Assembly: GCA_036562265.1 (NCBI GenBank)
Contig: DATCKS010000404.1
Coordinates: 1-8,726, forward strand
Direction of reading: 5' to 3'
DNA: 8,726 nucleotides
From: DASVDK01 sp036562265 [NCBI: Thermodesulfobacteriota bacterium]
Lineage (GTDB): Bacteria; DASVDK01
In this document: positions 1-8,726 of the stretch, in pieces
How positions within the stretch are numbered: the first letter of the stretch is position 1
How the letters are laid out: each line of letters opens with the position of its first letter
Position numbers and translations under genes: made by a program
The notes under the pieces: generated by a model
Database searches by the model: none
Told to the model about the DNA's origin: nothing
The model's input: only the letters and a program-made list of their open reading frames with translations

Positions 1-934
1 CGACGGCCACGCGATCGGCCGGCGTGCCGGCTTCGAGGGCGCGGCGCACCTCGCGGGCGACCGCCTCCACCTCCTCGCGCCGGCCCGGCGCCTCGACGAA
101 CGCGAGCGTGCCGGCCGTGTCGATCGCCCCGCCGGACGGGACGCCGGGCGGCGCGAAGAGCCTCCCGCAGAGGGTCGCGAGCGGGTGCGCGGCGTCGGCC
201 GCCCCGCAGCGCGCGACCCGGCGCACCGAGAGCGGCGTTCCGGTCCCCTGCGCCGCGACCGTCAGCGCGTCGGCCGAGCGCGCCACCAGGGCGAAGAGCC
301 GCTCGCGCCCCTCGACCGGCGCCGGAAGGTGCACCTCCACCGGGACGAAGCGCGCCACGGCGGCGAGCAGCGCGGCATCGGACGGCAGCCAGCGGTCCCG
401 GCCGACGGCCACGATCCGCTCGACGCGGGCGAGGAGCGGCGGGGGATCGACGAGCTGCCAGAGGACGCCGACGAGCTGCCGCCGCCGGGCGGCCGGATCG
501 CCGCGGCCGAGGCGGTCGAGGTGCGCGTCGTACGCCCCGTACAGCTCGGCCAGCTCGCGCACCTTCTCGCCGAGGCGGCCGTCGAGGCGGACCAGGTGGA
601 GCTGGTAGGGGTGCACGAGCGCCCGGGCGAGCTGCCCGAAGAGGTCGCGCAGCCGGTCGGCGAAGCGGGTCGCGTGGCGGAGCGGCGCGAAGTAGCCGGC
701 CTGGTCGTCCGGATAGGCCTCCCGAAGGACGCGGCGCACGAGGAGGCGGGCCGCCGTCTCGGAGACGCGCGAGCCGGGACCGAGGACCTGGGAGGCCAGG
801 CGCTCCTCGAACGACGCGATGGTGAGCACGACCGGGCCGACCAGCGCCCCCGCCGCGTCGAGGCGCGCCTCCACCTCCTGCTCCGCGTGGAGCGCGGTCG
901 GGACCAGCGTGAGGGTGCGGGGGCCTGGCGCCAT
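1..934 (-). CDS. AddB-like PD-(D/E)XK nuclease/helicase-type protein, N-terminal part (partial)
   Basis: The reading frame starts at an ATG (934-932) and stays open to the left edge, giving 311 residues with no stop; the C-terminus is outside the window. A GAGGA ribosome site (949-945) lies 10 nt upstream. The N-terminus (residues 7-20, TLTLVPTALHAEQE) and the stretch LTIASFEERL near residue 40 resemble the opening of AddB/RexB-type proteins, where a UvrD-like helicase fold precedes a C-terminal PD-(D/E)XK nuclease. Residues 280-311 (VEAPGRREEVEAVAREV, then RVAV) match the block with which these proteins enter their second RecA-like domain. No Walker A GxxGxGKT is visible at the N-terminus, so this domain is probably a non-ATPase scaffold. 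Relatives process DNA ends for recombination with an AddA/UvrD-like partner. The usual length is about 900-1000 residues, so roughly one third is seen. The nuclease motif is not in view and the assignment rests on family resemblance alone. Confidence 0.7.
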   Translation of the reverse strand, partial: MAPGPRTLTLVPTALHAEQEVEARLDAAGALVGPVVLTIASFEERLASQVLGPGSRVSETAARLLVRRVLREAYPDDQAGYFAPLRHATRFADRLRDLFGQLARALVHPYQLHLVRLDGRLGEKVRELAELYGAYDAHLDRLGRGDPAARRRQLVGVLWQLVDPPPLLARVERIVAVGRDRWLPSDAALLAAVARFVPVEVHLPAPVEGRERLFALVARSADALTVAAQGTGTPLSVRRVARCGAADAAHPLATLCGRLFAPPGVPSGGAIDTAGTLAFVEAPGRREEVEAVAREVRRALEAGTPADRVAV

Positions 935-991
935 GGGCCGCCCATCCTCACCGGAAACCGGCCCGGCGGTCAAGCGCCTTGCCGTGCGGCA

Positions 992-2155: not shown

Positions 2156-2296
2156 CGCGCGATCCGGCGAACGGCCGTCGTCGCGCCGGATGCGGGCCGG
2201 CCTGCGTCTTGCACCGTGCCGCCGCTCGGAGCGGGTCGCGCGGCGCCGCGGCCCGCGCGAGACGGACGACAGGCGAAAAGAGAAGGGACATCGACG

Positions 2297-3298
2297 ATGA
2301 CGACAGGTGAGATGCCGAAGCGGCGGCTCGGGACGCAGGGGCTCGTGGTCTCGGCCCTTGGCCTCGGCTGCATGGGGATGTCGGAGTTCTACAGCGGGCG
2401 GGACGACGCCGAGTCGATCGCGACGATCCACCGGGCGCTCGACCTCGGGGTCACGTTCCTCGACACGGCCGACATGTACGGCGTCGGCCGCAACGAGGAG
2501 CTGGTCGGCCGGGCCATCCGCGGCCGCCGCCACGAGGTGGTGCTCGCCACCAAGTTCGGCAACGTGCGGGGCGCGGACGGCTCGTTCCTGGGGGTCAACG
2601 GCCGGCCCGAGTACGTTCGGTCGGCCTGCGAGGCGAGCCTCGAGCGCCTCGGCGTCGACGTGATCGACCTCTACTACCAGCACCGGGTCGATCCGAACAC
2701 GCCGATCGAGGAGACGGTCGGCGCCATGGCCGACCTGGTCCGGGAGGGGAAGGTCCGGTACCTGGGCCTCTCGGAGGCGGCGCCGGCCACGATCCGGCGG
2801 GCCCACGCCGTCCACCCGATCACGGCGCTGCAGACGGAGTACTCGCTCTGGAGCCGCGACCCGGAGGACGAGATCCTCCCGACCTGTCGCGCCCTCGGCA
2901 TCGGTTTCGTCGCCTACAGCCCGCTCGGCCGCGGGTTCCTCACCGGTCAGATCCGGCGCTTCGAGGACCTGCCGGAGGACGACTACCGCCGCCGTTCGCC
3001 CCGCTTCCAGGGGGAGAACTTCCAGCGGAACCTCGACCTCGTCCGCCGGATCGAGACGATGGCCGCCGAGAAGGGGGTCAAGCCGTCGCAGCTCGCCCTC
3101 GCGTGGCTCCTCGCGCGCGGGGCGGACATCGTCCCGATCCCCGGCACCAAGCGACGCAGCTACCTCGAGGAGAACGTCGCGAGCGTGCGGATCGAACTCA
3201 CGCCGGACGACCTCGCCCGGATCGACGAGGTCGCCCCGAAGGGGGCCGCCGTCGGCGACCGGTACCCGGCCGAGGCGATGCGGATGCTCAACCGGTAG
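2297..3298 (+). CDS. Aldo/keto reductase (AKR13-like)
   Basis: 333 residues, the usual length for a single-domain NADPH-dependent aldo/keto reductase. The ATG is chosen because AGAAGGGA (2281-2288) lies 8 nt upstream and the protein opens with [16 protein letters not shown], the normal AKR N-terminus; an upstream in-frame start at 2216 adds only low-complexity residues. The (beta/alpha)8 barrel carries the full catalytic tetrad: D56 and Y61 (in FLDTADMYG), K86 (ATKFG) and H129 (YYQHRVD). The C-terminal NADPH-binding segment is [14 protein letters not shown] (280-293). [12 protein letters not shown] near residue 22 and [14 protein letters not shown] near residue 126 are typical of the AKR13 group, which reduces a range of aldehydes and quinone-like substrates with NADPH. 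The protein is soluble, with no signal peptide. The substrate cannot be read from the sequence. It follows the WYL regulator on the same strand, but 184 bp and a stem-loop separate them, so co-transcription is uncertain. Confidence 0.93.
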
Positions 3299-3344: not shown

Positions 3345-4472
3345 CTAGAGGAGCCGGCGCCCCCGGGCGAACACCGCCACCGGCGCGAGGTCGGGGCCGA
3401 GCACGGTGATGTCGCCGTCCGCCCCCGGGGCAAGGCGCCCCTTGGTCTCGGCGAGGCCGAGCACCCGCGCCACGTTCCGCGTGATCAGCGAGAGCGCGTC
3501 GGCGAAGCCGAGGCGCCCCGCCCGCACGAGGCCCTGCCAGTCGGCGAGCAGCGCCCGGTTCGTCGCCATCCGCATGGCGACGAGCCTGCCCGCCTCGTCG
3601 AACTCGGGGAGGCTGCCGTTGCTGTCCGAACTCATCGTGATCCTCGAGACCGGAACGCCCGCGTCGACGAGGTAGTGGACCGCGTCGACGGCGCCGACGG
3701 CGTGTCGATCCGGGAACTCGAACGCCGTGACGTCGACCGGCGCGCCGAACTCGAGCGCGTAGGCGGCCGCCTCCTCGAGGAGCCGGCGGTGGCGGTTGAC
3801 GTGCGTCGGGATCACCTGGTCGGGCGGGATCTCCGTCTCGCGCAGGAGCGTCCGGAGCGGCGCGAGACCCCTCTCGCCGGACCCGACGTGGAAGTGGCAG
3901 ATGCCGCGCTTGCGGGCCAGCATGCCGCCGATGCGGGCCTCGCTCACGAGGCGCGCGATCTCGGCGTCGGTCGGCTGCGCCGAGCGGTGGTCGGAGATGG
4001 CGATCTCGCCGACGCCGATGACCTCCGGAATCCAGGCGAGGTCCCGCTGCACGTCGCCGGTCAGGGTCGGCGGGGGGATCCGGTAGGCGCCGGTGTACAT
4101 GTAGGCGCTGATTCCCTCTTCCCTGAGCCCGCGCGTTCTGGCGAGGAGGTCGGCGGGGGAGCGGCTCACGCTGTCGGTGCCGAGCACGCCGACCACGGTG
4201 GTGACGCCAACCGCGACGATCTCCTTCGCCGTGATGGCCGGGCAGCGCGTCGAGAAGCCGCCCTCGCCGCCGCCGCCGGTGACGTGCACGTGCTGGTCGA
4301 TGAAGCCGGGGACGGCGATGCCGTCCGGGACGTCGACGACCTCGACCGGCAGGCCGGACGGCACCGGCAGGTCGTCGCCCAGGGCGACGATCCGGCCGTT
4401 GGCGACGAAGACCTCGCGGTGCCCCGACGGGTCCGGCGTGTGCACCTCCTTGACGCGCAGAAGCGTGAGCAT
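3345..4472 (-). CDS. iadA: Isoaspartyl dipeptidase (beta-aspartyl peptidase), amidohydrolase superfamily
   Basis: 375 residues (E. coli IadA is about 390). The start ATG follows a GGGAGGGA ribosome site by 3-4 nt. The enzyme cleaves beta-aspartyl dipeptides left by degradation of isomerised proteins or of cyanophycin-type polymers, using a binuclear metal centre in a TIM barrel. Residues visible, matched to E. coli IadA from memory: metal ligands H61 and H63 (PGFIDQHVHV), H195 (HFHVGSG), H224 (PTHVNRH) and D283 (MSSDSNGS). Substrate-site residues: E70 (GGGGE), Y130 (TGAY), R163 (SDHRS) and R227. The bridging carboxylated lysine of E. coli (K162) is absent: the equivalent segment is GVGEIAISDHRS, with E156 at that place. 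The N- and C-terminal beta-sandwich pieces are present (residues 1-55 and about 345-375). The gene stands alone, convergent with the reductase and divergent from the YHS gene. Family assignment is strong; a relative with other substrate preference is possible. Confidence 0.9.
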   Translation of the reverse strand: MLTLLRVKEVHTPDPSGHREVFVANGRIVALGDDLPVPSGLPVEVVDVPDGIAVPGFIDQHVHVTGGGGEGGFSTRCPAITAKEIVAVGVTTVVGVLGTDSVSRSPADLLARTRGLREEGISAYMYTGAYRIPPPTLTGDVQRDLAWIPEVIGVGEIAISDHRSAQPTDAEIARLVSEARIGGMLARKRGICHFHVGSGERGLAPLRTLLRETEIPPDQVIPTHVNRHRRLLEEAAAYALEFGAPVDVTAFEFPDRHAVGAVDAVHYLVDAGVPVSRITMSSDSNGSLPEFDEAGRLVAMRMATNRALLADWQGLVRAGRLGFADALSLITRNVARVLGLAETKGRLAPGADGDITVLGPDLAPVAVFARGRRLL

Positions 4473-4607: not shown

Positions 4608-4763
4608 ATGGCGACGTTCAGGGACCCGGTCTGCGGCGTGCAGGTCGACGACGGATCGGCGGAGATCGAGAGCACCTACCAGGGCAAGACCTACGTCTTC
4701 TGCTCCGAGGACTGCAAGCGGAGGTTCGAGGAGGACCCGGCGCGCTACGCGGTCCGCCCGTAA
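4608..4763 (+). CDS. Free-standing YHS-domain protein (51 residues)
   Basis: A small complete gene with a good ribosome site (AAAGGAG, 4594-4600) 7 nt before the ATG. The whole protein is one YHS domain: FRDPVCG (4-10) with C9, then YQGKTYVFCSEDCKRRF (24-40) with C32 and C36, then a closing EDPARYAV. The pattern DPVCG...Y.G..Y.FCS..C...F..DP is the family signature. YHS domains occur at the N-termini of copper-transporting P-type ATPases and in monooxygenases, and as small solo proteins thought to bind metal through these cysteines; the exact role of solo forms is unclear. It is soluble, with no signal peptide or membrane segment. It is divergent from the isoaspartyl dipeptidase gene and convergent with the archerase operon, with no metal-transport gene beside it. 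A longer reading of the same frame starting at 3675 overlaps the peptidase gene in antisense and is rejected. Confidence 0.9.
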   Translation: MATFRDPVCGVQVDDGSAEIESTYQGKTYVFCSEDCKRRFEEDPARYAVRP

Positions 4764-4835: not shown

Positions 4836-6062
4836 TCACGCCCCGGCGGCGGCGCTCGCCGCCGTGCCGGTCCCCGCCGGCAGCAGCGGACACCCGGCCG
4901 GCATCGCGGCCTTCTTCTTCTCGATGATCTCGGGCCCGTATCGCTCCAGGTAGTGGGCGATCGTCTCCACCCGGATCTTCACCGAGCCGGCCGGCTTGGT
5001 CGAGTCGAGTTCCTGGAAGGAGAAGAAGAGGGTGCCGGAGCGCTCGACGATCTGCTGGACCGGCGTGTAGGTCGGCTGGTCCATGCCGCACTCGTAGCTC
5101 GCGAGCCGGATCACGCAGGCGATCCAGGGGACGCGCGCGGCGACCTTCGCCCCCCAGAGGATCTCGTTCGTGTTGGAGCTGTAGGAGGAGGGCCACACGT
5201 CGGCGATGCTGAAGGGGGACGGGATGTCGCCCGCGGCGACCTCCCGGCCGAAGGCCCACTGCACGAGGTCGGCGTCGATCGGCAGGTACTGCGCCCAGAG
5301 GATCGGGTAGCCGAAGGCCTGCAGGTCCACCTCGATCTCGTGCCCGATGCCGGGGTCCATGTGGTACGGCCTGGCGAGGATCAGGAGGCAGGGCCGATCC
5401 TCGCGCGCGCACCACTCGAGGATCTCCCGCCCCTTCCTGCGGAGCCGGTCGTTGAACGCCTCGAGGCTCCGGTAGCCCGCCTCGACCGCCCGCGCCGTCT
5501 CCTCGAGCGTCAGGTCGGGCAGCACCTCCTTGAACGCCGCGTAGAGTTCCTTCGGCACGAGCGCGGGCTCCCCGAGGGAGACGAGCGGTGCCACGTGCCT
5601 GACCCCCTGCTCGGCGAAGAGGTCGCGCTCCTTGGTGAAGCCGGCCTTGATGTTCTCGGGCGCGGCCATGACCCTCGGGCAGGAGAGGGTCTGGACCACG
5701 TGCGGGCCGAGGAAGGAGGGGAGGGAGTAGATCATGGGCGACAGCAGGATGTCGATCTTCTTCCGCTGCCCGAAGAGGAGTTCCCCGTAGTGCCCCGAGA
5801 CGCACTTGACCGGGTAGCAGCAGTCGACGGTGCCGCGGCCCTTGCCGAACTGCCGGCCCTGCTCCTCGGAGGTGTCCGAGGAGAAGACGATGGCGCCCGG
5901 CGCGATGCCGAGCGCCGTGAGGAAGCCGACCCAGAACTGGTGAGTCGACCAGATGTTGAGGACCTTCGGGATCCCGACCCGGAGGTTAGCCCGACTGGAC
6001 GGGGCCGGTCGGTCGGCGGAAGGCCTCCTTGCGAACCACCTCGGCCAGGTTCGGATAGGCAC
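4836..6062 (-). CDS. DUF2229/HgdB-like component of an acyl-CoA dehydratase activase-type system
   Basis: 408 residues if read from the GTG at 6062, the only start codon in this frame ahead of the conserved domain. The conserved part begins at residue 26 with NLRVGIPKVLNIWS, the usual opening of the DUF2229 (COG3580-like) segment. Visible cysteines: C81, C82 and C87 (DCCYPVKCVSGH), C128 (TLSCPRV) and C325 (LASYECGMDQPTYTP). Some probably bind an Fe-S cluster, as in HgdB-type dehydratase subunits. The segment ILARPYHMDPGIGHEI (228-243) is also typical. The tail after residue 390 is Ala/Gly-rich and looks non-conserved. In the homologues I recall, this domain is fused behind two ASKHA activase domains. 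Here it is a separate frame that overlaps the end of the activase gene by 77 nt, so it is either a gene with an overlapping start or the rear half of a frameshifted fusion. The reaction catalysed is unknown; a role as electron acceptor or catalytic partner of the activase is inferred. Confidence 0.82.
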   Translation of the reverse strand: MPIRTWPRWFARRPSADRPAPSSRANLRVGIPKVLNIWSTHQFWVGFLTALGIAPGAIVFSSDTSEEQGRQFGKGRGTVDCCYPVKCVSGHYGELLFGQRKKIDILLSPMIYSLPSFLGPHVVQTLSCPRVMAAPENIKAGFTKERDLFAEQGVRHVAPLVSLGEPALVPKELYAAFKEVLPDLTLEETARAVEAGYRSLEAFNDRLRRKGREILEWCAREDRPCLLILARPYHMDPGIGHEIEVDLQAFGYPILWAQYLPIDADLVQWAFGREVAAGDIPSPFSIADVWPSSYSSNTNEILWGAKVAARVPWIACVIRLASYECGMDQPTYTPVQQIVERSGTLFFSFQELDSTKPAGSVKIRVETIAHYLERYGPEIIEKKKAAMPAGCPLLPAGTGTAASAAAGA

Positions 6063-8169
6063 GCTTGACCTCCTCGAGCTTGCCCTTCACCACCCGCATC
6101 TCGTTCACGTCCTCGACGAGCCCCTTGGGGCAGGAGTTGCCGCTGATGACGCGCTCCCAGCCTTCCGAGAGCGGCAGCTTGCTCCAGGGCCGCCCCTTGC
6201 CCTCCGCGAGCCGGACGTCGATGAAGGTCCGCTTGCAGTTGCACGGGCACCAGTGGCAGACGGTGTCCTGGCTGGTCGTGCTCCGATAGGTCAGCGACTC
6301 GATCGCGTCGAAGCCGCGGAAGCGCGAGGGGCGATCGCCCGTGCGCCGATCGGCGGCGCAGAGCGCGGCGCCGATGGCGCCGGCCTCGCCCGGGTAGGGA
6401 TGGACGACGATCTCGGCGTCGGGGACCTTGCTCGTGATGAAGTCGACCTGGGCCTTCACGACGGCGAGGTTCCGGTGGGTGCCCCCCTGCAGGATGAACT
6501 TCCGGCCGACGGCGCGCAGGTTCTGGAGCTGGCCCGCGTAGACCCACACGTTGAGGGGGAGGACGGCCGCGAGCGACGCCATGATCTCGTCGGCCGACCA
6601 GCCCTTGCGCTGCTGGTTCACGATGTCGGACTGGAGGAAGACGCCGCAGCCCATCGCGAGGGTCGGCATGGCGCGCGCCTGGAAGGCCCGGTCGGCGTAC
6701 CGGTCGAGGGGGACGCTGTAGCGCTCGGCGACCCCCTGCAGGAAGGCGCCGTTGCCCGAGGAGCACTGGGAGTTCAGGCGGAAGTCGGCGACGGTCCCCT
6801 GCCTGAGGATCATGATCTTCACGTCGCAGCCGCCGACGTCGCAGATCACGTCGGCGTCGGGGAAGAAGTGGAGCGCCGCCGTCGCGTGGGCGACGGTCTC
6901 GACGATGGCCAGGTCCGCCCCGAGGATGTCGGTGAGGAGGTCCTTGCCGTAGCCGGTGACGGCGAGACCGCCGATGTCGTGGAAGCCGGCCTCGCGGATC
7001 TGCCGGAAGATCGCCTTGGCGTCCTCGATCGGATTGCCCTTCGACGGGGCGTAGCAGCTCGACAGGAGCTCCCGGTCGGGCGAGAGGACGACCGCCTTCG
7101 CCGTCGTGCTGCCGAAGTCGCAGCCGACGAGCACGCCGGTTCGCCGCCCGGCGGCTGGCACGGCGCGCGGCGCCGGGATCGCCCGCACGCGGTTCCCGTA
7201 CCGTCCGAGGAACCGGGTGAGCTCGTTCTCGTCCGCGGCAAGCCCCCGCGCGCCGTCCTTCGCCTTCTGCGCGTGCTGCCCTTCCTCGATCCACCACCGG
7301 AGCCGTTCGGTCCCCTGATAGACCCCGACGCCGTCCGCCTCCTGCCGGCCGATCTCGACGCACCCGAGACAGGCGTAGTAGAGGGCGTCGGGCGGCACGT
7401 GGACGAGCGACGCGGGATCGACCCCGTCGGGCAGGGGGACGCGGCGCTGCATCCAGAGCGCCGTGAGGTGGTGCCGCCAGGCCTCCTGAAGCCCGGCGAA
7501 GAAGAGGTTCGGCCCGCCGAGGAGCAGCACCTCCGGCATGGGGGTGTTGCCCTTGGTCAGGGTCGCGAGGTTCTGGTAGACGACGGCCTCGAACAGGCTC
7601 GCGATGATCTCCTCGACCGGCACGCCGGCCTTGACGAGCGTGTTCGCGTCGGCCTCGGCGAAGATGCCGCACTTCGAGCTGATCTTGTGGAGGGAGAGCC
7701 CCGCGTAGGGCATCCGCGCGAGCCGCTCGGGCTCGATCTGCAGCTTGCGGGCGGTCTTCTCGATGAAGGTCCCGGTCCCGCCGCTGCAGGCCGACTGCAT
7801 GTAGACCTGCTTCGACTTCCCGGCGCCGGTGGGGGTGAAGAAGATCGTCTTCATGTCCTCCCCGCCGATCTCCGAGACGAACCGCACGCCGGGGTGCAGG
7901 CGCTCGACCGACGCCGCGACGGCGACGACCTCCTGCACGAACTTCCCACCGACGAGCGGCGCGATGAACCCGGCGCCGGAGCCGGTGAAGAAGACGCGGT
8001 CGCGACCCGGCGCGAGCGCGCAGTCGGCCTCCATGCGACCGAGGAAGTCGAGGACCGTCTCGGCCTGCCGGGTGCCGTGCCGCCGGTAGTCCTGCCAGAG
8101 CAGGCGGCCCTCGTCGACGACCGCCGCCTTGACCGTCGTCGAGCCGACGTCGATGCCGACGATCTTCAT
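5986..8169 (-). CDS. Tandem ASKHA (BcrAD/BadFG-type) 2-hydroxyacyl-CoA dehydratase activase-like ATPase
   Basis: 727 residues, starting at the ATG of MKIVGIDVG, which overlaps the previous stop as ATGA. Two complete ASKHA ATPase domains follow one another. Domain 1 (about 1-270) has phosphate loop GIDVGSTTVK, GGEDMK (102-107), C128 in SACSGGTG, C167 in SSKCGIFAE and LLLGGP (215-220). Domain 2 (about 345-605) has GCDFGSTTAK, GGCDVK (446-451), C469 in NSQCSSGNG, C508 in MGCGVFLQ and LQGGTH (560-565). In HgdC-type activators (one domain, about 260 residues) a homodimer holds one [4Fe-4S] cluster between two cysteines per subunit, and ATP hydrolysis drives an electron into a dehydratase or reductase. 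Here each domain keeps its own cysteine pair, so one chain could form the cluster as a pseudo-dimer. A Cys-rich tail follows: C638, C641, C643, C645 and C680 (in SGNSCPKG). The protein is soluble. It is the middle gene of a minus-strand operon. Family confidence is high; the partner's substrate is unknown. Confidence 0.92.
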   Translation of the reverse strand: MKIVGIDVGSTTVKAAVVDEGRLLWQDYRRHGTRQAETVLDFLGRMEADCALAPGRDRVFFTGSGAGFIAPLVGGKFVQEVVAVAASVERLHPGVRFVSEIGGEDMKTIFFTPTGAGKSKQVYMQSACSGGTGTFIEKTARKLQIEPERLARMPYAGLSLHKISSKCGIFAEADANTLVKAGVPVEEIIASLFEAVVYQNLATLTKGNTPMPEVLLLGGPNLFFAGLQEAWRHHLTALWMQRRVPLPDGVDPASLVHVPPDALYYACLGCVEIGRQEADGVGVYQGTERLRWWIEEGQHAQKAKDGARGLAADENELTRFLGRYGNRVRAIPAPRAVPAAGRRTGVLVGCDFGSTTAKAVVLSPDRELLSSCYAPSKGNPIEDAKAIFRQIREAGFHDIGGLAVTGYGKDLLTDILGADLAIVETVAHATAALHFFPDADVICDVGGCDVKIMILRQGTVADFRLNSQCSSGNGAFLQGVAERYSVPLDRYADRAFQARAMPTLAMGCGVFLQSDIVNQQRKGWSADEIMASLAAVLPLNVWVYAGQLQNLRAVGRKFILQGGTHRNLAVVKAQVDFITSKVPDAEIVVHPYPGEAGAIGAALCAADRRTGDRPSRFRGFDAIESLTYRSTTSQDTVCHWCPCNCKRTFIDVRLAEGKGRPWSKLPLSEGWERVISGNSCPKGLVEDVNEMRVVKGKLEEVKRAYPNLAEVVRKEAFRRPTGPVQSG
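6069..6075 (-). promoter_or_regulatory. Internal ribosome binding site that may set the DUF2229 start
   Basis: GAGGAGG on the minus strand, inside the activase coding region (codons for Glu-Glu-Val near residue 700), lies 6 nt before the GTG at 6062-6060. The match and spacing are as good as those of any gene in the window and support independent initiation of the DUF2229 gene. The caution is that GAG GAG codons are common in this GC-rich DNA, so the match may be accidental. Confidence 0.45.
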
Positions 8170-8726
8170 CGGCCCGCCCCCCGCGACGCGAGGTGGAGCA
8201 CCAGGTTCGCGGCCGTCCCGGCGACGCCGTCGCGCGGCACGCGGTAGGTCGCCCGGCGCATCTCGGGGTGCGCGGCAAGGTAGGCCCGCGCCGCCTCGGG
8301 CGTGAGCCGCGCGCGGCCGAGCGCCTCCTCGTACTCGCGATGCGCCCGCTTCCTGGCCTCGGCGAGGACCATCTGGCAACGCGACAGGACGTGCACCTCG
8401 GCATCCCCCTTGATCTCGAGCGGCGCGTAGAGGAGGTCCGGGTGCTTGCCGAGGACGCCGGCCATCGCCCCCACGCTCATCGTGTTGGGCATGCAGGCGT
8501 AGGGCGACAGCTCGCACGTCATGTGGGCCTTCTTGTGGTGGTAGGCCCAGAGCGCCTTGCCGACGAGCATGTCGCCCTCGCCGCCGGAGAGCCGGCTGTG
8601 GAAGTACGGCGCGGCGAGGCGCCGCAGCTCGTACTGGTCCGGCAGCTCGTGCGGCAGACCGCCGAGCGCGCGGCGCAGCCGGTCGTACGCGGCGCGCAGG
8701 AGGCGCTGCAGCGCCCGTCCGGTCGC
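8166..8726 (-). CDS. HgdB/COG3581-like 2-hydroxyacyl-CoA dehydratase component, C-terminal end (partial)
   Basis: The frame is open from the right edge to a TGA at 8168-8166, giving the last 186 residues; the N-terminus is outside the window. An internal Met at 8570 is not taken as the start, because the upstream residues (YELRRLAAPYFHSRL, then GGEGD) continue smoothly into the conserved part. The core is GEGDMLVGKALWAYHH, then C71 and C78 in CELSPYACMPNTMSVG, then KHPDLLYAPLEIKGDAEVH and a helix beginning SRCQMVLAEARKRA. It has the layout of the C-terminus of COG3581/HgdB-type proteins: a GxGxxxxGKA helix, a CMPxT loop, then an acidic AP.E.KGD.E strand. In the fused homologues I recall, this piece comes last; here it is encoded first. 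The stop overlaps the start of the tandem activase gene (ATGA), indicating translational coupling and work in one complex. The final 45 residues look poorly conserved. The COG-level assignment is from memory of motifs. Confidence 0.7.
   Translation of the reverse strand, partial: ATGRALQRLLRAAYDRLRRALGGLPHELPDQYELRRLAAPYFHSRLSGGEGDMLVGKALWAYHHKKAHMTCELSPYACMPNTMSVGAMAGVLGKHPDLLYAPLEIKGDAEVHVLSRCQMVLAEARKRAHREYEEALGRARLTPEAARAYLAAHPEMRRATYRVPRDGVAGTAANLVLHLASRGAGR

What the first reader, a model, noticed from the sequence alone, without database searches (positions are those of the whole stretch)
4836..8726. Archerase-type operon split and rearranged compared with the usual single giant protein, substrate unknown
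ASKHA-ASKHA-DUF2229-HgdB-like domains usually occur, to my knowledge, in that order in one protein of about 1400 residues with no assigned reaction. Here the HgdB-like piece is encoded first and the DUF2229 piece last, with tight overlaps at both junctions. No acyl-CoA ligase, CoA-transferase or ferredoxin gene is visible to name a substrate. ATP-driven low-potential electron transfer to an unknown acceptor is the likely theme, making this the best candidate in the window for an undescribed system.
Basis: partly seen in the sequence, partly recalled or inferred. Interest (0 to 1): 0.6.

Follow-up and report, generated by a model that had tools for sequence, protein, structure and literature searches.

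The report
Three-gene ATP-driven lipid-reductase-like operon
A soil-bacterium operon encodes, as three separate proteins, an ATP-driven iron-sulfur reductase related to enzymes that turn ester-linked membrane lipids into ether-linked ones, and the same split arrangement recurs in bacteria that carry oxygen-respiration genes, which suggests where some unexplained bacterial ether lipids could come from.

Summary
In detail: on the minus strand lie an HgdB-like gene (C-terminal part only), a double-ASKHA gene and a DUF2229 gene, in that order. It is not peculiar to the window: of 81 loci in five phyla, 64 show the whole order, none another; 17 are cut or lack a gene. That the fused form has no assigned reaction is out of date: fused and two-gene forms are PlsA/PlsR plasmalogen synthase and Ger glycerol ester reductase, tested in E. 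coli (passages and sections seen). The window's proteins are homologues of such forms with the same cysteines, in a clade beside them. I read an ATP-driven two-cluster reductase, most likely converting glycerolipid esters to alk(en)yl ethers; the substrate is inferred, not shown. New to me: DUF2229 starts inside the ASKHA gene at an ATG or GTG present in 86 of 87 junctions (some fetched twice), usually with a Shine-Dalgarno-like site, and the overlap encodes a Trp-Phe peptide not conserved in fused relatives.

The parts
8166..8726 (-). C-terminal part (186 codons) of an HgdB-like ('Red2', PlsR-like) subunit; 5' end off the contig; Cys78 of the fragment (SPYACMPN) is one of the cysteines conserved with PlsA-type proteins
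   Evidence: tblastn places it at L001 7340-7870 within the full gene 6374-7891; alignment; AlphaFold2 of the L001 relative, pLDDT 85.4; top eight structural matches HadC, BzdO, DCCP, MbdON subunits, Z 8.3-9.6, next row 6.8
5986..8169 (-). double ASKHA activator (Act1-Act2, 727 aa), each half with the two cysteines expected to hold the bridging [4Fe-4S], plus a cysteine-rich tail (VCHWCPCNC ... GNSCPKG)
   Evidence: 1hux E 1.7e-23; patterns looked for anywhere in the frame: D(V/I/F)GS(T/V)T, GGEDMK, CSGGTG, KCG(I/V)F, CSSGNG each 65 of 65 full-length relatives, GCGVF 64 of 65, DFGST(T/S)AK 61 of 65
4836..6062 (-). DUF2229 ('Red1') subunit, 408 aa, GTG start nested in the ASKHA gene; Cys82, Cys128, Cys325 line up with PlsA-type proteins
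   Evidence: AlphaFold2 pLDDT 84.6; top ten structural matches all of the 2-hydroxyacyl-CoA dehydratase/benzoyl-CoA reductase/DCCP kind, Z 9.7-12.1, next row 5.9
5986..6062 (-). 77-nt overlap: end of the ASKHA gene and start of the DUF2229 gene in the +1 frame; AYPNLAEVVRKEAF... in one frame, VPIRTWPRWFAR... in the other
6069..6075 (-). Shine-Dalgarno-like GAGGAGG 6 nt before GTG 6062, inside ASKHA codons
   Evidence: in the 5-16 nt before the start GGAGG in 49 of 87 junctions, a 4-base version in 21, a 3-base one in 14, none in 3
8166..8169 (-). ATGA overlap of HgdB-like stop and ASKHA start

Best explanation
The operon encodes one enzyme in three pieces. The double-ASKHA protein is a pseudo-dimeric ATP-driven electron 'archer' with a [4Fe-4S] cluster between its halves. 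DUF2229 and the HgdB-like protein form the receiving heterodimer, each subunit with a three-cysteine Fe-S site. ATP hydrolysis pushes single low-potential electrons onto the substrate carbonyl. By homology to PlsA/PlsR and Ger, the likeliest substrate is the acyl ester of a membrane glycerolipid, reduced to an alkyl or vinyl ether. The nested start of DUF2229 probably couples its translation to that of the ASKHA protein. Shown here: genes, order, conservation, homology, cysteine conservation, predicted folds. Inferred from the family: ATP use, clusters, heterodimer. Inferred and unproven: the lipid ester as substrate. That it is an ATP-driven BCR/HAD-type reductase I hold at about 0.93; the figure below is for the glycerolipid-ester reading (lowered from 0.55 on rereading, where the HgdB-like protein does not favour the PlsA side).
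For: Same four modules as PlsA/Ger (two activation, two reduction domains). Collinear homology with the five plasmid-borne fused or two-gene relatives L081-L085: ASKHA 27-31% over 689-732 aa (239-316 bits, against 129-152 for the nine rows of other DUF2229 groups or distant acidobacterial rows compared, most of them cut short), DUF2229 24-25%, including the Cys-rich tail. Fusobacterium L082 has the two-gene layout described for C. perfringens plsA-plsR. Shared cysteines: CxPxK, CP and CGxD in DUF2229; CxP, CR and PF/YxCxPN in HgdB-like. In the tree (ASKHA2 plus DUF2229) the split clade (25 of 25 rows, support 100) and its neighbours join the group of Listeria, Fusobacterium, Acetoanaerobium, Collinsella and Haliovirga proteins and four acidobacterial ones with support 99, apart from the other DUF2229 groups. 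Neighbours on the same strand point to lipids in a minority of loci: GDPD glycerophosphodiesterase downstream in 6 (4 of 39 downstream ORFs scanned by Pfam), an FA_desaturase_2-like gene just upstream of HgdB in 7 Rokubacteria, a TetR_C_24 TetR upstream in 7, TatT/TRAP transporter genes in 5. A TetR gene directly upstream of pls is reported for E. faecalis and other facultative anaerobes.
Against: Identity to the PlsA-type proteins is low. The HgdB-like protein of L001 is no closer to L081-L085 (62-103 bits) than to several proteins of the other DUF2229 groups (up to 99 bits), and it was not in the tree. The five comparators are called PlsA-type by layout and homology; none was tested one by one, and the validated Thermotoga, Desulfatibacillum and C. 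perfringens sequences were not at hand. I saw no lipid data for these hosts. Neighbours are not conserved across the clade: most loci show none of these genes. Acid transporters (MFS in 8 Acidobacteriota) fit other substrates as well. The tree program warns of long branches at the very joint that matters. Ger2 of D. alkenivorans, a homologue, gave no ether lipid on expression. PlsA-type enzymes are oxygen-sensitive, yet the six hosts tested carry COX1 (6 of 6).
Confidence: 0.5

Rival explanations
1. A BCR/HAD enzyme acting on a CoA thioester: an ATP-driven dehydratase or reductase of an unknown acyl-CoA, like 2-hydroxyacyl-CoA dehydratase or an aryl-CoA reductase.
For: Predicted folds match HadC, BzdO, MbdON and DCCP subunits; acid transporters upstream in some groups (MFS in 8, TRAP DctM in 4-5 loci); acyl-CoA ligases near six Rokubacterial operons, though on the opposite strand.
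Against: Equivalog models for benzoyl-CoA reductase subunits are far below cut-off (100.5 against 578, 96.1 against 312.85, 91.9 against 380.2). No hydratase, CoA-transferase or ligase recurs next to the operon in the ORFs scanned (50 upstream, 39 downstream). Over ASKHA the nearest characterised layout is PlsA-type with a double activator.
Confidence: 0.27
2. A PlsA-like reductase for another lipid-type substrate (free or carrier-bound fatty acyl group, or another esterified lipid), giving an aldehyde, alcohol or other product rather than a glycerol ether.
For: Lipid-type neighbours in a minority of loci (FA_desaturase_2-like, GDPD, FadR-like TetR); a branch of 0.9 changes per column leads to the split clade.
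Against: I know of no characterised relative that does this; it rests on branch length and neighbours only.
Confidence: 0.15
3. A general low-potential electron donor or small-molecule reductase of the double-cubane cluster protein (DCCP) kind.
For: DCCP is among the best structural matches (Z 8.8-11.3).
Against: Two different receiving subunits and a fused double activator here; that DCCP and its activator are each of one kind is recalled, only the entry titles were seen.
Confidence: 0.05
4. The split is an assembly or sequencing frameshift of an ordinary fused gene.
For: The DUF2229 frame is +1 to ASKHA, and 17 relatives have both in one frame.
Against: Separate assemblies from five phyla keep the same frame, start codon and, mostly, ribosome site.
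Confidence: 0.01

Closest known systems
PlsA/PlsR plasmalogen synthase (Clostridium perfringens plsA-plsR; single-gene PlsA in Enterococcus, Lactococcus, Bifidobacterium)
   Same: Two activation and two reduction domains; against PlsA-type records L081-L085 collinear over ASKHA and DUF2229 with shared cysteines; two-gene layout seen in L082
   Different: Three genes instead of one or two; HgdB-like gene first; DUF2229 out of frame with ASKHA and nested in its end; 21-31% identity to L081-L085. The tested PlsA sequences themselves were not compared
Ger glycerol ester reductase (Thermotoga maritima, Desulfatibacillum alkenivorans)
   Same: PlsA homologue with two activation domains (BB); ester to alkyl ether on expression in E. 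coli (passages and sections)
   Different: As above; sequences not at hand, so distance not measured. A 'modified Ger' is something I recall but could not check: the 2022 paper is not held
HgdB-first operons with ASKHA and DUF2229 fused, Acidobacteriota (16 loci among L124-L144)
   Same: Same order; 45-47% identity in ASKHA for the four rows compared; probable sister group
   Different: ASKHA and DUF2229 are one protein; start column and Trp-Phe codons not conserved. No function known to me
(R)-2-hydroxyisocaproyl-CoA dehydratase HadBC, benzoyl-CoA reductase BzdNO, DCCP
   Same: Predicted fold of both reduction subunits
   Different: CoA substrates or small molecules, separate small activator (recalled); 9-16% identity in the structural alignments

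Membership tests
BCR/HAD archerase superfamily | ASKHA acyl-CoA dehydratase activase domain | tested here: met
   TIGR00241 215.6 bits against 125.4; PF01869 in two stretches; 1hux E 1.7e-23
BCR/HAD archerase superfamily | Two cysteines per activator half for the bridging [4Fe-4S] | tested here: met
   CSGGTG and KCG(I/V)F 65 of 65; CSSGNG 65 of 65, GCGVF 64 of 65. Which cysteines bind is recalled from HgdC; the cluster itself is not testable here
BCR/HAD archerase superfamily | Reduction subunits of the HadBC/BzdNO fold with conserved cysteines | tested here: met
   VIA Z 9.7-12.1 (DUF2229) and 8.3-9.6 (HgdB-like of L001, a smaller margin over the next row, 6.8); cysteines. For the window the HgdB-like fold is read through its relative L001
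PlsA/PlsR/Ger | Two activation plus two reduction modules | tested here: met
PlsA/PlsR/Ger | Order Act1-Act2-Red1-Red2, in one or two genes | tested here: not met
   Red2 first and three genes in 64 of 81 loci, no other order, 17 incomplete. Hence described as a variant, not filed as a member
PlsA/PlsR/Ger | Published PlsA sequence motifs | not tested
   The paper that defines them (Jackson 2021) is not held
PlsA/PlsR/Ger | Makes vinyl or alkyl ether lipids | not testable with these tools
   needs expression and lipid analysis
Benzoyl-CoA reductase | Equivalog models of subunits A, D, Q | tested here: not met
   100.5/578, 96.1/312.85, 91.9/380.2 bits
Double-cubane cluster protein | One kind of receiving protein with a separate single-domain activator | tested here: not met
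   Two unlike receiving subunits and a double activator here; the defining composition is recalled

The most novel reading that the evidence does not exclude
A three-subunit, oxygen-exposed ether-lipid synthase: a PlsA/Ger-type archerase that split, swapped its gene order and gained a nested, overprinted start, letting oxygen-respiring soil bacteria (Rokubacteria, Acidobacteriota, Roseomonas and Burkholderiales relatives) convert membrane ester lipids to ethers, and so a missing source of alkyl-ether and branched tetraether lipids in soils.
Probability: 0.33. Interest if true: 0.75.

Novelty: new variant of a known kind. Interest (0 to 1): 0.5.

Why it matters
Bacterial branched tetraether lipids are used to reconstruct past temperature and pH, yet their producers are largely unknown (abstracts and passages seen). 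If this operon makes ether lipids, it gives a concrete gene marker in genomes that also carry COX1 (6 of 6 tested), and an oxygen-exposed member of an enzyme class reported as oxygen-sensitive. Apart from function, it is a clear case of one enzyme spread over three genes, with a start codon and a short new peptide overprinted on the neighbouring gene and kept across phyla.

Tried and rejected
Programmed frameshift producing an ASKHA-DUF2229 fusion: rejected as the main reading because ATG or GTG stands at one column in 86 of 87 junctions, with a Shine-Dalgarno-like site in most; a minor frameshift product is not excluded.

Strong dual coding over the whole overlap: not supported. Mean third-position entropy of conserved ASKHA codons is 1.14 bits in the overlap (13 codons) and 0.99 upstream (151 codons). 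Only single positions stand out: Arg CGT 51 of 51 against 6.3% (73 of 1164) upstream, Val GTT 79 of 87 against 6%, Ile ATT 36 of 40 against 15%. The start-codon tally printed was read at the wrong codon and is replaced.

Conserved neighbours naming a substrate: none holds across the clade. Cluster 3 (acyl-CoA ligase) looked widespread by single linkage (19 loci) but is closely similar only in six Rokubacteria, on the opposite strand. The Rokubacterial FA_desaturase_2-like gene of L015 had no PDB match below E 0.05. Profiles of DUF2229 and HgdB-like found no PDB chain below E 0.4. A scan of viral contigs confirmed no relative. The promoter scan found none and the terminator scan 3 against 1.3 expected; not used. 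The term 'modified Ger' was searched: 'mGer' with 'brGDGT' gave 0 papers, and the 30 of 469 papers listed did not describe it.
Full report
What is there. On the minus strand the window holds an HgdB-like gene running off the right edge (8166-8726), a 727-residue double-ASKHA gene (5986-8169) and a 408-residue DUF2229 gene (4836-6062). Pfam and NCBIfam confirm DUF2229 and two BcrAD_BadFG stretches with TIGR00241; they do not see the HgdB-like piece. No genome is held for the window. The nearest relative found is a Rokubacterium (L001; 80, 81 and 78% for the three pieces).

It is a clade, not a local rearrangement. A scan of genome contigs with the DUF2229 protein kept the best 80 of 130 relatives. 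In 64 of 81 loci (window included) HgdB-like, ASKHA and DUF2229 follow each other as three genes. In 13 the contig ends too close upstream of ASKHA to hold HgdB; L028 and L041 have no HgdB-like match in a longer upstream stretch (the ASKHA frame of L028 is itself incomplete); L044 and L080 show no ASKHA (L080 is cut). DUF2229 was searched in three phyla, the starting genome counted: 4 of 299 Pseudomonadota, 31 of 95 genomes of the Rokubacterial phylum and 51 of 199 Acidobacteriota had a match. Of the 4 in Pseudomonadota only the starting genome has the split size; the other three lie in frames of 1239-1615 residues. In the Rokubacterial phylum 17 of 32 matches lie in open frames of 402-474 residues (the split size), 10 in frames over 1000, and 5 in shorter ones.

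Other layouts. A profile search shows four: split HgdB-ASKHA-DUF2229; HgdB plus fused ASKHA-DUF2229 (Acidobacteriota); fused ASKHA-DUF2229 plus HgdB; and all fused; a script gave the labels, and 17 long frames without a clear HgdB match stayed doubtful. On a tree of 93 rows (ASKHA2 plus DUF2229) the split form is one clade (25 rows, support 100). The HgdB-first fused form (16 rows) is one side of a branch with weak support (58), and L144 and L096 are unresolved. These 42 rows together have support 100. They join a group of nine (Listeria, Fusobacterium, Acetoanaerobium, Collinsella, Haliovirga and four acidobacterial loci) with support 99, apart from the remaining DUF2229 groups. The program warns of long branches at these joints, and the root is a midpoint.

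What the relatives do. The papers seen give assigned reactions to this architecture. PlsA and PlsR of C. perfringens, and single-gene PlsA of lactic acid bacteria and Bifidobacterium, make vinyl-ether plasmalogens in E. coli, and the Lactococcus enzyme does so well even in air (PMC12838417, passages). Ger, a PlsA homologue with two activation domains, makes alkyl ethers (PMC13274423 passages and section 18; PMC11150832 passages and section 16; PMC11604127 passages; the T. maritima gene Tmari_0479 as a candidate in PMC8788747, passages). Sequence alone cannot yet tell PlsA from Ger. The founding papers (Jackson 2021; Sahonero-Canavesi 2022) are not held. I recall the term 'modified Ger' from the latter but could not check it, and a search for it with 'brGDGT' gave no held paper; so the three-gene form may already be in print. 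A study of Solibacter usitatus, an acidobacterium grown at 1-21% oxygen, proposes PlsAR homologues for its ether bonds (PMC10087280, passages).

Homology and cysteines. Against L081-L085 the window's ASKHA aligns at 27-31% over 689-732 residues and its DUF2229 at 24-25%; the HgdB-like protein of L001 aligns at 21-24%. By bit score ASKHA favours this group clearly and DUF2229 moderately over the other DUF2229 groups, but the HgdB-like protein does not (62-103 bits against up to 99). The alignment keeps the activator motifs and the Cys-rich tail, and three cysteines in each reduction subunit. Activator patterns hold in 61-65 of 65 full-length relatives; the Act2 pattern GGCDVK as I wrote it holds in only 19 of 65, the tail pattern CxWCPCxCxRTF in 1 of 65 and GNSCPKG in 34 of 65. 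Predicted models (pLDDT 84.6 and 85.4) match 2-hydroxyisocaproyl-CoA dehydratase, benzoyl-CoA reductase and DCCP subunits: Z 9.7-12.1 for DUF2229 against 5.9 for the next row, and 8.3-9.6 for HgdB-like against 6.8.

The nested start. DUF2229 begins inside the ASKHA gene in the +1 frame. In 87 junctions (some fetched twice) the column holds GTG 54, ATG 32, CTG 1 (L068); in one (L104) it does not lie in the DUF2229 open frame. The overlap has a median of 68 nt (56-152, n 86). In the 5-16 nt before the start, GGAGG is found in 49, a 4-base version in 21, a 3-base version in 14, none in 3. Where ASKHA has Arg at this column the codon is CGT in 51 of 51, against 73 of 1164 Arg codons upstream. Further on, ASKHA Val is GTT in 79 of 87 against 6% upstream, giving Phe in the +1 frame in 79, with Trp before it in 81. 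In 17 relatives with ASKHA and DUF2229 in one frame the start column varies and that Val is Ala in 17 of 17. So the start codon and a short L..WF peptide appear selected in the second frame, while the overlap as a whole shows no lower synonymous variation. Translational coupling is the plain reading; a membrane or docking role for the Trp-Phe peptide is a guess.

Neighbours. Most loci have no shared neighbour. Of the 81 loci 73 hold at least 1.2 kb downstream and 57 at least 1.2 kb upstream of HgdB. Where a gene recurs on the same strand: GDPD downstream in 6 (four close by, two 1.7 and 5.6 kb off), an FA_desaturase_2-like gene just upstream in 7 Rokubacteria (E 3.7e-5 for L015, above the cut-off; 7e-4 for L002, below), a TetR with TetR_C_24 in 7 (L145 included), MFS in 8 Acidobacteriota, TatT/TRAP genes in 5. 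In L036 TatT, DctP-type, DctQM, the three genes and GDPD lie in one row. This leans to lipids or hydrophobic acids, but each neighbour is bound to one group of hosts, and the window itself has none of them: downstream it has a YHS-domain gene on the other strand and an isoaspartyl dipeptidase gene; upstream is off the contig.

Oxygen. Six genomes that carry the operon all have COX1 over cut-off (6 of 6). That shows capacity for oxygen respiration, not when the operon is used.

Verdict. The system is a conserved, three-gene, HgdB-first variant of the PlsA/PlsR/Ger kind rather than an undescribed chemistry. That it is an ATP-driven BCR/HAD-type reductase I hold at about 0.93, by family; that it makes lipid ethers at 0.5.

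Noticed in passing
window 3345-4472, minus: Isoaspartyl dipeptidase gene (TIGR01975 410.6 bits against 331.25), downstream of the operon on the same strand after a gap of about 360 nt.
   Followed up: partly
window 4608-4763, plus: 51-aa YHS-domain protein (PF04945 66.3 bits against 30.3), opposite strand, between the operon and the dipeptidase gene.
   Followed up: partly
window 2243-3298 and 1087-2112, plus: Aldo/keto reductase and a WYL/WCX transcription regulator. A related frame also follows the operon directly in L021 (cluster 39), perhaps coincidence.
   Followed up: no
window 2-973, minus: 324-aa open frame running off the left edge with no Pfam or NCBIfam match at E 0.001.
   Followed up: no
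L044 (Parvibaculum sp.) 9809-11251 and L041 (Hyphomicrobiaceae): L044 has a DUF2229 of the split clade with no ASKHA or HgdB-like match in the ~10 kb held upstream; L041 has ASKHA and DUF2229 but no HgdB-like match in 7.9 kb upstream. Reduced or dispersed operons.
   Followed up: no
G002 C73:43444-44100 (L091): The L001 Rokubacterium carries a second DUF2229 gene, fused to ASKHA, from a different DUF2229 group.
   Followed up: no
L052, L065: Metagenome bins titled Bordetella parapertussis carry the operon and group with other betaproteobacterial bins; the titles may be wrong.
   Followed up: no
L090-L095, L106, L108-L110, L112, L114-L119, L121-L123, L133, L135, L139, L143, L146-L159: Other DUF2229 groups in Acidobacteriota and the Rokubacterial phylum, fused or ASKHA-DUF2229 then HgdB, on the other side of the tree from the PlsA-type group and without a function known to me.
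   Followed up: partly
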